A stretch of DNA of 64,000 bases from Clostridiales bacterium DTU069 (GTDB lineage Bacteria > Bacillota > Clostridia > DSM-8532), in NCBI GenBank assembly GCA_001512485.1, contig LFRV01000095.1, forward strand, positions 1 to 64,000, read 5' to 3'. Shown piece by piece: positions 12,384 to 60,358 of this stretch. Position numbers and translations under genes: made by a program. The notes beneath the pieces are model-generated. The model was not told the origin of the DNA. It saw only the letters and a list, made by a program, of their open reading frames with translations, and ran no database searches. Every line of letters begins with the position of its first letter. Within the stretch, counting starts at the first letter, position 1.

Positions 12384-12509
12384 AACAATAAACCTCCCGG
12401 AATAACTTTTCAAAATCTAAAACGCGGCCTCTCAATCTATTTTTACTATACCATATCATAGCAAATTGCCGCAAGCTGTCGGTTTCATCAGTTTACGCGG
12501 AAACCCGTA

Positions 12510-12811
12510 TTAACCGATATTTGCTTTGTCGCCCCAGGAACCCGAAACACCCGAACCAGGACCCGCGGGAATTACGACGAAAACACAGCGGGTGGTTCGG
12601 GTGCTTTCGGTGACGACGGGCGACATGCTCCGAAGCCCTTCTACCTACAGGCAACTGTGGAGCGGGTTAATGAGCGAAACGGGATATGGAGACCACTTCT
12701 TAATGAAATGAACAGGATCTAAAGCGTGTTGTCGGTATGTGCTTTGTCGACACAGGAAACGAAACACCCGAACCAGGACCCGCGGGAATAATGTCTAACA
12801 TTTTACTTCCT
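12510..12811 (+). repeat. Structured intergenic repeat, 'outer' module, tandem partial copies (copy A1)
   Basis: GCTTTGTCG..AGGAA.CCGAAACACCCGAACCAGGACCCGCGGGAA occurs twice (from ~12523 and ~12741), with TTCGGGTGCTTTCGGTGACGACGGGCGACATGCTCCGAAGCCC between; similar sequence at 16.0 and 30.3 kb. Confidence 0.85.
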
Positions 12812-12910
12812 GAACTATTGTACAATAACGTCAACAAGGAGCTTCATTTGCAAGAGCTATACAGTTCAGCTCGGGAAAGTCGAAACTCGCAAAAATGCTT
12901 TAAAAAATCT
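12812..12910 (+). repeat. Left arm of the ~205-bp palindromic element (truncated copy)
   Basis: GAACTATTGTACAATAACGTCAACAAGGAGCTTCATTTGCAAGAGCTATACAGTTCAGCTCGGGAAAGTCGAAACTCGCAAAAATGCTTTAAAAAAT nearly identical to 16085ff and 37430ff; the right arm is missing. Confidence 0.9.
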
Positions 12911-13007
12911 CTGCTTCGTTTTCTGCCTTGTTTCATGCCGAAAAAGAGTATACAATAATGTAACGTGCATTCGTCCCGGATTCCGAGTATTGAAAGGAGC
13001 ATAAACA

Positions 13008-15440: not shown

Positions 15441-15953
15441 TTAGCGGGCGGATATAATTTTATGGATTTCATGAGGCCACTTATCGCTTACGTTTTCTTC
15501 CCCTTTGTAATAATCGACTTTATCCTTCACCTCGTATATCTCCCGGTACGGAAGGATATTTACTTTCCCCGAGTCCGGATATTCGCAGACATCTATATCG
15601 GCGGCCGTACGTATATCAAGATAAAAGCACGGATTTTCCGTATGGTTATACATCTGGTGCGCGCCTTCCGGTCCCATTTCAAAGAATACGATATCGCCTT
15701 CATCTAACTCTATAAATTCCTGGGGCGTTCTAAGAATTGCTTTCCCGGACAGGATTACGAAGAGCTCTTCCGCATTCCTGTGAAAATGGTACGGGTAAGA
15801 ATATTTTCCCGGATCAAGCGACCTTACGTCAAAATGCAAATGCTTTGATTTTACAAGTTCCGCGAGTTTTTGACTTGTATGCCAGGAAAATTCGGGTACC
15901 GGTGATTGCCGCAATTCAAACGGCAGATTTTTTGCGTTGAATATGTGAGCCAT
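15441..15953 (-). CDS. Cupin-domain protein
   Basis: YPYHFHRNAEELFVILSGKAILRTPQEFIELDEGDIVFFEMGPEGAHQMYNHT cupin motifs. Confidence 0.85.
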   Translation of the reverse strand: MAHIFNAKNLPFELRQSPVPEFSWHTSQKLAELVKSKHLHFDVRSLDPGKYSYPYHFHRNAEELFVILSGKAILRTPQEFIELDEGDIVFFEMGPEGAHQMYNHTENPCFYLDIRTAADIDVCEYPDSGKVNILPYREIYEVKDKVDYYKGEENVSDKWPHEIHKIISAR

Positions 15954-16011
15954 GCAATATTCTCCTCCTTACTTAATTATCTATGTTGACTATACTAAAC
16001 AACCAGCAGGT

Positions 16012-16084
16012 TGTGCTTTGTCGACCTAGGAAACGAAACACCCGAAACAGGACCCTTGGAAACATGTCTAACATTTTACTTCCT
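16012..16084 (+). repeat. Outer repeat module, left part (copy A2)
   Basis: GTGCTTTGTCGACCTAGGAAACGAAACACCCGAAACAGGACCC...ATGTCTAACATTTTACTTCCT, near-identical to 12737-12811. Confidence 0.88.
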
Positions 16085-16288
16085 GAACTATTGTACAATA
16101 ACGTCAACAAGGAGCTTCATTTGCAAGAGCTATACAGTTCAGCTCGGGCAAGTCGAAACTCGCAAAAATGCTTTAAAAAATTTTTGCAGGCAGCATTTTT
16201 GCTCAGACAGTCGACTTGCTTTCCCTCGCTCTGACTGTATATCTCTATGCTTCATTCCGCTATAGCTTCCGTTATTGTACAATAGTTC
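16085..16288 (+). repeat. ~204-bp near-palindromic MITE-like element, full copy
   Basis: Perfect 19-bp terminal inverted repeats GAACTATTGTACAATAACG / CGTTATTGTACAATAGTTC, with further pairing stems inward (GCAAAAATGCT/AGCATTTTTGC; CAAGTCG/CGACTTG; TATACAGT/ACTGTATA). Confidence 0.88.
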
Positions 16289-16401
16289 TTCTGAGTAGCC
16301 CGTGAGAGTTACGCCGAAAACACAGCGGGTGGTTAACGGGTCGAGGCTTTGCTGCCGCGTTCCGGTGGGTACACGGCTTTGGTTCGGGTGTTTTCGGTAA
16401 C
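16289..16401 (+). repeat. Outer repeat module, right part (copy A2)
   Basis: CGCCGAAAACACAGCGGGTGGTTAACGGGTCGAGGCTTTGCTGCCGCGTTCC...GGTACACGGCTTTGGTTCGGGTGTTTTCGGTAAC; matches the 30.3-30.5 kb copy on the opposite strand. Confidence 0.85.
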
Positions 16402-18649: not shown

Positions 18650-18672
18650 AAAAAAAGCCCACAGCGGGGCAT
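18650..18672 (-). terminator. Putative Rho-independent terminator downstream of xerD
   Basis: Minus strand GCCCCGCTGTGGGC followed by a T8 run. Confidence 0.55.
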
Positions 18673-18735
18673 TAGAGCATGTCATCCTTCGTCACCGAAA
18701 GCACCCGAACGAGGGCAGCGTGCTACGAGCTTTCA
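18666..18735 (-). repeat. Outer repeat fragment (copy A4) overlapping the xerD 3' end
   Basis: Minus strand CTCGTAGCACGCTGCCCTCGTTCGGGTGCTTTCGGTGACGAAGGATGACATGCTC; core identical to TTCGGGTGCTTTCGGTGACGA at ~12598. Confidence 0.7.
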
Positions 18736-19574
18736 TTTACAATTTGCAAATATACCTGCGTCGATGAAATATCCGAATGTCCGAGCATCATCTGAACATC
18801 CTTGAGGTCCTTTCCCCTCTGTACAAGATGCGCAGCGAATGAGTGCCTCAGCGTATGCGGAGTAATATCCTTGTTGATGTTCGCTTTTGAAGTGTAATAC
18901 TTGACAATTTTCCAAAAACCCTGCCTTGTCAGCCTTTTTCCGTTCGTATTGACAAACAGGGCCTTTTCGTCCTTGTCCCTGAGCATGAACGGCCTTACTT
19001 TCTCAAGATATTCCTTCATAAGTTCGACGCATTTTCTTGAAATCGGAATTTTACGTTCACGGTTGCTGTGGCAGCAAGTTAGAATTGCTTTTTGTAAATC
19101 CAAATCTTCAACATTCAGTGAAATAAGTTCAGATACCCTGATTCCTGTCGAGTAAAGCAATTCCAGCATTGATTTGTCACGTACACCTTTCAAACCAATC
19201 CTGTTCGGCTGGTTTAAAAGTATTTCCACTTCTTCGACCGAAAGAATCTGTGGTATCTTTTTCTCTATCTTTGGTGATTCAAGCCCTATTGTCGGATTGC
19301 CCGTCATAAAGTCATGAGAAATTAAAAACCTGTAAAATGCTCTGATTGACGCAAGGCTCCTTGAAATAGTTGTAACCGCCCGCCCTTGACTGTTCTGATA
19401 TGCAATGTAGGTTGAAATTGTCGCTCTGTTGCTTTGTTGGATACTGTTAACGTTTTTGCGCTGAAGAAATGCGATATACTGTTCGATGTCCCTCTGGTAC
19501 GACATAAGTGTGTTTTGGGAAAGCTTTTTTTCATCCCTAAGATAATGGATAAATGCTGTAACAAGATTGTCCAT
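18723..19574 (-). CDS. xerD: Tyrosine recombinase XerD-like (C-terminally shortened)
   Basis: N-terminal SAM-like domain; catalytic region (STGIRVSELISLNVEDLD, HTLRHSFAAHLVQRG, MLGHSDISSTQVYLQI); only 8 residues follow the catalytic Tyr. Confidence 0.9.
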   Translation of the reverse strand: MDNLVTAFIHYLRDEKKLSQNTLMSYQRDIEQYIAFLQRKNVNSIQQSNRATISTYIAYQNSQGRAVTTISRSLASIRAFYRFLISHDFMTGNPTIGLESPKIEKKIPQILSVEEVEILLNQPNRIGLKGVRDKSMLELLYSTGIRVSELISLNVEDLDLQKAILTCCHSNRERKIPISRKCVELMKEYLEKVRPFMLRDKDEKALFVNTNGKRLTRQGFWKIVKYYTSKANINKDITPHTLRHSFAAHLVQRGKDLKDVQMMLGHSDISSTQVYLQIVNESS

Positions 19575-30240: not shown

Positions 30241-30588
30241 GCCGCTTTTGAACTGTTGCACTAAACACTATCCCCGCGGGTCCTGCTTCGGGTGTTTTCG
30301 TTTACTTGGGCGACAAAGCACCTACCGATAGCACGCTCCATGCATTTTATTAAATTCGCACAGTGGTCTCCATATTCCGGGTCGCTCATTTGCCCGCTCC
30401 ACAGTTACCTGTACGCAGCAGGGCTTCGGAGCATGTCGCCCGGCGTAACCGAAAACACCCGAATCAGAGCCGCGTACCAATCGGAACGCGGCAGCAATGC
30501 CTAGACCCGTTAATCACCCGCTGGTTTGCGGCATTAATTGCAGGTGAAGACTTGTTACCATGTAATTACGCAATAGTTCAAAAGCGGC
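30241..30588 (-). repeat. Complete-looking structured repeat (copy A3) bounded by 19-bp inverted repeats
   Basis: GCCGCTTTTGAACTGTTGC (30241-30259) and GCAATAGTTCAAAAGCGGC (30570-30588), 18/19 complementary. Internal arms 30287-30322 and 30428-30463 pair with each other; body matches 12.5-12.8 kb and 16.3-16.4 kb. Confidence 0.82.
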
Positions 30589-37279: not shown

Positions 37280-37365
37280 TTGCCGATGCTCCTTTTTAAA
37301 GAAATGCCGCAAAAACGAATGTTCCCTTAAAATTATAACATAACGGATCATCACTGCAAACTGTT

Positions 37366-37429
37366 ACCCGTCGTCACTGAAATCACTTGAATAGACCCCG
37401 CGGAAATAATGTTTATACACTGCCCATTA
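37366..37429 (+). repeat. Outer repeat module, left arm (copy A5)
   Basis: GTCGTCACTGAAATCACTTGAATAGACCCCGCGGAAATAATG; pairs with 37676-37697. Confidence 0.75.
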
Positions 37430-37635
37430 GAACTATTGTACAATAACGTCAACAAGGAGCTTCATTTGCAAGAGCTATACAGTTCAGTTCGGGCAAGTCG
37501 AAACTCGCAAAAATGCTTCGGAATATTTTTTGCAGGAAGCATTTTTGCTCAAACAGTCGACTTGCTTATCCTCGCTCTGACTGTATATCTCTAGGCTTCA
37601 TTCCGCTATAGTTTCCTTTTATTGTACAATAGTTC
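37430..37635 (+). repeat. ~206-bp near-palindromic MITE-like element, full copy
   Basis: Same sequence as 16085-16288 with scattered substitutions; terminal GAACTATTGTACAATA / TATTGTACAATAGTTC. Confidence 0.88.
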
Positions 37636-37720
37636 CTCTGATTATTGCGCTGATTCAACCAATCAGCCAGCGGGTGGTTCGGGTGATTTCAGTGCGACTG
37701 GAGATACTGCGGTGTTGCGT
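37636..37720 (+). repeat. Outer repeat module, right arm (copy A5)
   Basis: CAGCGGGTGGTTCGGGTGATTTCAGTGCGAC; first part matches 12588ff and 16328ff. Confidence 0.7.
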
Positions 37721-60299: not shown

Positions 60300-60358
60300 A
60301 AAGCGGGTGATTAACGACGGGCGAAGCATTGCTTGCGCGTTCCTGCAGGTACGCGGCT
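60300..60358 (+). repeat. Outer repeat fragment (copy A6)
   Basis: AAGCGGGTGATTAACGACGGGCGAAGCATTGCTTGCGCGTTCCTGCAGGTACGCGGCT resembles (minus strand of 30.5 kb) CAGCGGGTGATTAACGGGTCTAGGCATTGCTGCCGCGTTCCGATTGGTACGCGGCT. Confidence 0.7.

What the first reader, a model, noticed from the sequence alone, without database searches (positions are those of the whole stretch)
30241..30588. A 330-350 bp structured repeat bounded by 19-bp inverted repeats: a possible complete unit of an undescribed non-autonomous element
Sequence shows: GCCGCTTTTGAACTGTTGC (30241-30259) and GCAATAGTTCAAAAGCGGC (30570-30588) are complementary at 18/19 positions. They enclose sequence that recurs (on the opposite strand) at 12.5-12.8, 16.0-16.4, 37.4-37.7 and 60.3 kb. 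Inside, 30287-30322 (TTCGGGTGTTTTCGTTTACTTGGGCGACAAAGCACC) and 30428-30463 (GGAGCATGTCGCCCGGCGTAACCGAAAACACCCGAA) are mostly complementary and would form a long stem. The ~105-nt loop holds a conserved block (CTGTGGAGCGGG.AATGAGCGA..CGG.ATATGGAGACCACT) also present at 12.65-12.70 kb. The GAACTRTTG core at the ends is shared with the separate 205-bp palindrome. No transposase or other long ORF lies within. Inference: a non-autonomous mobile element or structured-RNA element.
Basis: partly seen in the sequence, partly recalled or inferred. Interest (0 to 1): 0.72.

Follow-up and report, generated by a model that had tools for sequence, protein, structure and literature searches.

The report
Mobile repeat with a conserved fold
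About fifty copies per genome of a 200-letter repeat fold, when read on one particular strand, into the same shape in several families of clostridia; the repeat is in no RNA catalogue we could search, and copies appear to overwrite one another at fixed places between genes.

Summary
The repeat is real but the proposed unit is wrongly bounded. The outer 19-bp inverted repeat (18/19) belongs to a GAACTATTGTACAATAGTTC-type linker, conserved at this locus in two sister species; it is not the end of the element. The repeating core is 30269-30466 (197 nt), with 39 distinct full copies analysed in this 2.55-Mb draft genome, about as many hits in each sister species, and fewer in other genera of the family.

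Covariance models found diverged homologs in other genera and in two further Clostridia families (one only a truncated copy). Two helices change sequence almost completely between groups yet keep pairing (104 double-changed cells versus 31±5 shuffled), while loop motifs such as ACCCG-RA-GGAC and GUGCUU stay fixed. On the window's minus strand the helices hold 68 G-U against 27 A-C cells. Loop columns and a neighbouring 203-bp palindrome show no such bias. This indicates selection for a folded single strand of one polarity: RNA is favoured, ssDNA is not excluded.

At 10 of 12 orthologous sites a copy resembles a paralog elsewhere in its own genome more than its ortholog, so site contents are replaced within genomes. 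No Rfam match; no association with RAYT genes. Partner and copying mechanism are unknown.

The parts
30269..30466 (-). Core of the element (197 model positions); the folded strand is the window's minus strand
   Evidence: Models R1-R3; nhmmer hit 2-197 of the core profile
30450..30466 (-). Helix 1 (outer stem), 5' arm on the minus strand; about 9-11 bp, a one-base bulge, then UUUCG
   Evidence: Covariation
30285..30301 (-). Helix 1, 3' arm on the minus strand
   Evidence: Covariation
30434..30441 (-). Helix 2, 5' arm (GGGCGACA on the minus strand)
   Evidence: All 7 pairs show changes on both sides across groups
30308..30315 (-). Helix 2, 3' arm (UGUCGCCC on the minus strand)
   Evidence: All 7 pairs show changes on both sides across groups
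30415..30432 (-). Conserved loop block 1, consensus GCUUCGnAGCnnUnCUnC
   Evidence: Conserved across genera in A9
30362..30388 (-). Conserved loop block 2, consensus UGAGCGACCCG(U/G)RA...GGAGACCUCU
   Evidence: Most conserved columns of A7 and A9
30314..30326 (-). Conserved loop block 3, GGURnGUGCUUUG, leading into helix 2
   Evidence: A9
30467..30513 (+). Optional 46-nt hairpin insert (GAGCCGCGTACC...GGAACGCGGC...GACCCGTTAA), also found without a core
   Evidence: Present in L001-L004 and absent from most copies; second occurrence at 60319-60358
30275..30281 (+). Basal GCGGGT arm that can pair with 30516-30521
   Evidence: Fold
30516..30521 (+). Partner ACCCGC of the basal stem
   Evidence: Fold
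30241..30259 (+). Left arm of the 19-bp outer inverted repeat: linker sequence, not an element end
   Evidence: Shared with G001 and G002 at the orthologous site
30570..30588 (+). Right arm of the 19-bp outer inverted repeat: linker sequence
   Evidence: Shared with G001 and G002 at the orthologous site
12593..12790 (+). Second full core in the window (folded strand = plus), flanked by an arm fragment 12506-12572 and a half 203-bp palindrome 12798-12914
16011..16399 (.). Mosaic copy: arm fragments around a full 203-bp palindrome; the sister species has a full core between the same ends
18662..18710 (-). Decayed arm fragment; longer orthologous copy in G001
37362..37694 (.). 203-bp palindrome with arm fragments
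60319..60358 (-). Isolated hairpin insert
   Evidence: I8

Best explanation
This is a family of non-autonomous, structured, dispersed elements of Clostridia. The unit is a core of about 200 nt whose functional form is a folded single strand of fixed polarity, most likely an RNA: two long helices of free sequence hold conserved internal-loop nucleotides. Shown here: copy number, strand-specific covariation and wobble bias, conserved loops over three taxonomic families, species-specific amplification, and replacement of contents at fixed sites with flips of the core. Inferred: the fold is bound by a protein supplied in trans, which copies the strand into intergenic DNA and preferentially back into sites that already hold arms of the element ('homing'). 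Arm-to-arm recombination and deletion then give the inverted, tandem and truncated mosaics such as the copy at 30241.
For: Own genome: 57 listed matches, 40 candidates scored. Model R1 hits: 70, 52 and 53 in the three genus members, 22 in G019, a few in other genera. Diverged homologs in genus g2 and in families f64 and f87, the last a truncated copy. Covariation: 52 double-changed cells versus 15±3 within the near group, 42 versus 14±3, and 104 versus 31±5 with slid controls at most 38 across groups. Strand test on 93 copies: helices 1 and 2 hold 68 G-U versus 27 A-C cells (p 3e-5); helix 2 alone 26 versus 6; conserved loop columns go the other way (133 versus 173; Fisher p 3e-6); the 203-bp palindrome shows no such excess, 21 versus 37. 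Amplification: 62 of 79 nearest relatives lie in the same genome (about 30 expected from sample sizes) and there are species-only clades. Replacement: at 10 of 12 orthologous sites the copy is closer to a paralog (86-95%) than to its ortholog (77-85%), although flanks align at mostly 80-93%. Core orientation differs at 5 shared sites. Not in Rfam even at E up to 5, apart from chance hits.
Against: No transcription data and no identified partner. G-T wobble also stabilises ssDNA, so the strand test does not separate RNA from ssDNA. Copies are not independent samples, so the p-values are optimistic; capped at three cells per position the bias is 47 versus 25, p 0.013. No clean empty site with target duplication was found, so transposition is inferred from distribution and phylogeny. 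The replacement pattern could also be plain gene conversion.
Confidence: 0.5

Rival explanations
1. The folded single strand is DNA: a REPIN- or IS200/IS605-like hairpin processed on the lagging strand by a HuH (Y1) transposase supplied in trans.
For: It would also give strand-specific folding with tolerated G-T pairs. Y1_Tnp proteins of about 250 aa exist in many of these genomes. Tandem arrays and inverted arms resemble REPIN clusters (PMC3116915).
Against: Y1_Tnp presence does not track the element: 10 of 14 genomes with it, 11 of 20 without, p 0.48, and none in G001 (99% complete, about 50 copies). No copy flanks the 18 Y1_Tnp loci examined. The core is about 200 nt with large conserved internal loops, unlike REP singlets.
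Confidence: 0.22
2. An ordinary DNA-level MITE or palindromic repeat; the matching arms are kept by template switching or inverted-arm correction, with no function of the fold.
For: Palindromic arms and orientation flips; a neighbouring 203-bp palindrome of 92-96% identity behaves like a simple palindromic repeat.
Against: It does not predict conserved unpaired motifs across groups whose arms share almost no sequence, nor the strand-specific wobble excess that the palindrome control lacks. No constant ends or target duplications were seen.
Confidence: 0.13
3. A host-beneficial non-coding or cis-regulatory RNA, for example a leader or 3'-end element, that spread because it helps host genes.
For: Only 3 of 79 copies lie between convergent genes; many sit between a stop codon and the next promoter-like sequence. 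The G183 copies whose neighbours could be called read in the direction of the downstream gene.
Against: Orientation to genes is mixed (35 with the plus-strand core, 20 opposite, 21 divergent) and it flips between sister species. Distribution is patchy even within one genus (G019 22 hits, G010 none).
Confidence: 0.1

Closest known systems
REPINs / RAYT system (Pseudomonas, Enterobacteria)
   Same: Non-autonomous intergenic hairpins with inverted arms, tandem clusters and compensatory changes (PMC3116915)
   Different: About 200-nt core with conserved internal-loop motifs; no RAYT association or flanking copies here
ERIC, BOX, YPAL, Bcr1 and similar 70-290 bp stem-loop repeat families
   Same: Size, intergenic location, stem-loop potential, copy number (PMC2267715)
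IS-derived MITEs (from general knowledge)
   Same: Non-coding, dispersed, inverted arms
   Different: No constant ends, no TSD seen, no parent IS found
Mobile-element RNAs such as IS110 bridge RNA, TnpB omega RNA, HEARO (from general knowledge)
   Same: Structured RNAs of similar length tied to mobile DNA
   Different: No Rfam hit; here the RNA-like core is present in tens of copies with no gene inside; partner families not tested

Membership tests
REPIN/RAYT | Associated Y1 (RAYT) gene in the same genomes | tested here: not met
   10 of 14 genomes with the element versus 11 of 20 without, p 0.48; absent in G001 and G002
REPIN/RAYT | Repeats flank the RAYT gene | tested here: not met
   Model R3 finds nothing near 18 Y1_Tnp loci
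REPIN/RAYT | Inverted arms forming a hairpin in single-stranded nucleic acid | tested here: met
IS-derived MITE | Constant terminal inverted repeats with target-site duplication | tested here: not met
   Outer limits vary from copy to copy; best presence/absence pair, near 27.74-27.80 kb, shows no clean duplication
IS-derived MITE | Autonomous parent sharing the ends | tested here: inconclusive
Any Rfam 15 family | Match to the covariance model | tested here: not met
Functional structured RNA | Covariation beyond controls | tested here: met
Functional structured RNA | Strand-specific G-U tolerance | tested here: met
   control; ssDNA not excluded
Functional structured RNA | Expression as RNA | not testable with these tools
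   No transcriptome available
IS110 bridge RNA / TnpB omega RNA / retroelement RNA | Linked recombinase, nuclease or reverse transcriptase gene | not tested

The most novel reading that the evidence does not exclude
A new class of bacterial mobile RNA: a SINE-like, gene-less RNA of about 200 nt that is copied by an unidentified enzyme in trans and homes into sites already holding its own arms, conserved in fold over several Clostridia families.
Probability: 0.25. Interest if true: 0.88.

Novelty: new variant of a known kind. Interest (0 to 1): 0.66.

Why it matters
Families of bacterial intergenic repeats are usually recognised by sequence within a genus. Here a fold survives almost complete replacement of its helices between taxonomic families, carries a single-strand polarity signature, and its copies replace one another in place. 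That gives a concrete handle (a covariance model, conserved loop nucleotides, natural sister-species comparisons) on how gene-less repeats persist and copy themselves, and points to an unidentified partner.

Tried and rejected
Unit = 30241-30588 with TIR ends: rejected. RAYT partner: not supported. 5'-truncation as a sign of target-primed reverse transcription: rejected, because truncated copies are full-length in sister species at the same site (L006/L032, L128/L054/L061), so they look like deletions. Leader-type cis regulation: orientation is mixed and flips. Phylum-wide spread: only the own genome of 398 matched (strict filters). Hit in G224 (L196): appears to lie inside a protein-coding gene, treated as a false positive. 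Plasmid and phage collections: no match (one query each). Scan of genome contigs for named organisms: the server gave no answer, so hosts remain unnamed. Literature searches for such a repeat found nothing specific.

Full report
WHAT WAS CLAIMED AND WHAT IS THERE. The 19-mers at 30241-30259 and 30570-30588 pair at 18 of 19 positions, and the inner stem is real. But a search of the whole draft genome (2.55 Mb, 130 contigs) shows that what repeats is mainly positions 24-226 of the proposed unit, with 40 candidates scored and 57 matches listed. A profile built from these copies gives a sharply bounded 197-nt core, here 30269-30466, in dozens of full copies. Around the core lie shared arms (CGCGGGTCCTGG...HEAD / TAIL...CCACCCGCTG), a short linker with the palindrome GAACTATTGTACAATAGTTC, an optional 46-nt hairpin insert, and an optional 203-bp palindrome that is nearly always nested in the linker and is 91-96% identical between most full copies. 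Both sister species have it at this locus, although one holds only a 73-nt head of the core and the other an inverted fragment.

DISTRIBUTION. Model R1 gives 70, 52 and 53 hits in the three genus members, 22 in G019, 1 in G015, 3 in G007, weak hits in G006 and G031, and none in the other 24 of the 32 family genomes. Models R2 and R3 add G009, G023, G024 and G027 of genus g2 and two other Clostridia families (G183; G394 with one truncated copy); of 388 Clostridia genomes drawn, 10 score. One of those, G224, is judged a false positive. In a draw of 398 genomes of the phylum only the own genome scores. These wide searches score only six candidates per genome under strict filters, so absence is weak evidence.

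FOLD. Helix 1 (outer) and helix 2 are supported by compensatory change: 52 double-changed cells against 15±3 in shuffles for 65 near copies; 42 against 14±3 for 21 sequences; 104 against 31±5, and at most 38 in slid controls, for 29 sequences of several groups. Example: helix 2 reads GGGCGACA/UGUCGCCC in the genus, GAGCAACA/UGUUGCUC in G019 and GACUGUGUUUC/GAAACACAGUC in G183. Helix 1 reads UUCGGGUG..., GAUGCAGGG..., GACCGGCGGCGC... or GCAAGG... in different groups, each with its own complement. Meanwhile unpaired blocks persist: GCUUCGnAGC, ACCCG(U/G)RA...GGAC and GUGCUU.

POLARITY. On 93 full copies, reading the minus strand of this window's copy, helices 1 and 2 hold 68 G-U against 27 A-C cells (16 positions against 3). 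A strand bias of mutation would show in loops as well; conserved loop columns instead go 133 against 173 the other way (Fisher p 3e-6). The 203-bp palindrome from the same loci, taken as a control, has 21 against 37 and no consistent positions. So a folded single strand of one polarity is under selection. RNA is the simplest reading; ssDNA is possible. The copies are related, so these p-values are optimistic; capping each position at three cells still gives 47 against 25 (p 0.013).

DYNAMICS. Nearest relatives are in the same genome for 62 of 79 copies, about twice the expectation from sample sizes, and there are species-only clades. Yet about twenty intergenic sites are occupied in two or more sister species. 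At 10 of 12 such sites with full cores the copy is closer to a paralog elsewhere in its own genome (86-95%) than to its ortholog (77-85%). Copy number at a site changes (one core versus two, truncated versus three), the 203-bp palindrome and a core occupy the same outer ends in different species (16-kb site), and the core's orientation differs at five sites. At one of these, G001 L096, the interior is inverted between the arms. Thus sites are old and contents are replaced. Truncated copies look like deletions, since sisters hold the full copy. The best presence/absence difference is at window 27.74-27.80 kb, where only G002 holds a fragment, but it is not clean.

CONTEXT. Of 79 copies with called neighbours, only 3 lie between convergent genes; orientation to genes is mixed. 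The gene calls were simple longest-ORF picks. The finding's copy lies between a gene with a DUF3792 domain (followed by a cobA/btuR-type gene) and a small unannotated ORF.

MECHANISM. I commit to a non-autonomous structured element whose folded strand, probably RNA, is recognised by a trans-acting factor and copied into intergenic DNA, preferentially into existing sites. Shown: fold, polarity, spread, replacement. Inferred: factor, copying step, homing. The RAYT hypothesis was tested and is not supported.

NOVELTY. No Rfam 15 family matches even at E up to 5, apart from evident chance hits. It works like REPINs or BOX/ERIC-type repeats in being gene-less, hairpin-forming and dispersed, but fails the RAYT criteria and differs in conserved loops and polarity. 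I file it as a new variant of a known kind, with a 0.25 chance of being a new class of mobile RNA.

Noticed in passing
16085-16288, 37430-37635, half copy 12812-12914: A 203-bp near-perfect palindrome (GAACTATTGTACAATAACG...CGTTATTGTACAATAGTTC), about 28 full copies in this genome at 91-96% identity, almost always nested in the linker of the core family; a relative seems to occur in G019.
   Followed up: partly
30467-30513 and 60319-60358: A 46-nt hairpin (GAGCCGCGTACC...GGAACGCGGC...) that interrupts the outer stem on either side and also occurs alone; possibly a third, separately mobile module.
   Followed up: no
L096 (G001) 1010-1296 versus L047 (G000): The interior of the hairpin is inverted between its arms in one species, as if inverted-arm recombination flips the loop.
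   Followed up: partly
L164, L179, L207 (G024, G023): Copies lie beside GTCATCCTGAGCGAAGCGAAGGATC-type repeats, another palindromic repeat whose nature was not studied.
   Followed up: no
L162 and L169 (G183): Copies sit 29 bp upstream of an AAA-ATPase (RarA-like) gene and about 20 bp after a gene end that looks like rpoC, both in the direction of transcription.
   Followed up: no
18723-19574 (-): A tyrosine recombinase gene (Pfam Phage_integrase) lies directly beside the decayed copy at 18.66-18.71 kb; probably a XerC/D-type gene.
   Followed up: no
15462-16397 versus L084 (G002): A cupin-domain gene and the adjacent element are both absent from G002, with the flanks directly joined.
   Followed up: partly
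many short contigs of G000 and G002 (for example L013, L042, L063, L064, L065): Contig ends fall inside copies of the element or close to them, so draft assemblies probably undercount it.
   Followed up: no
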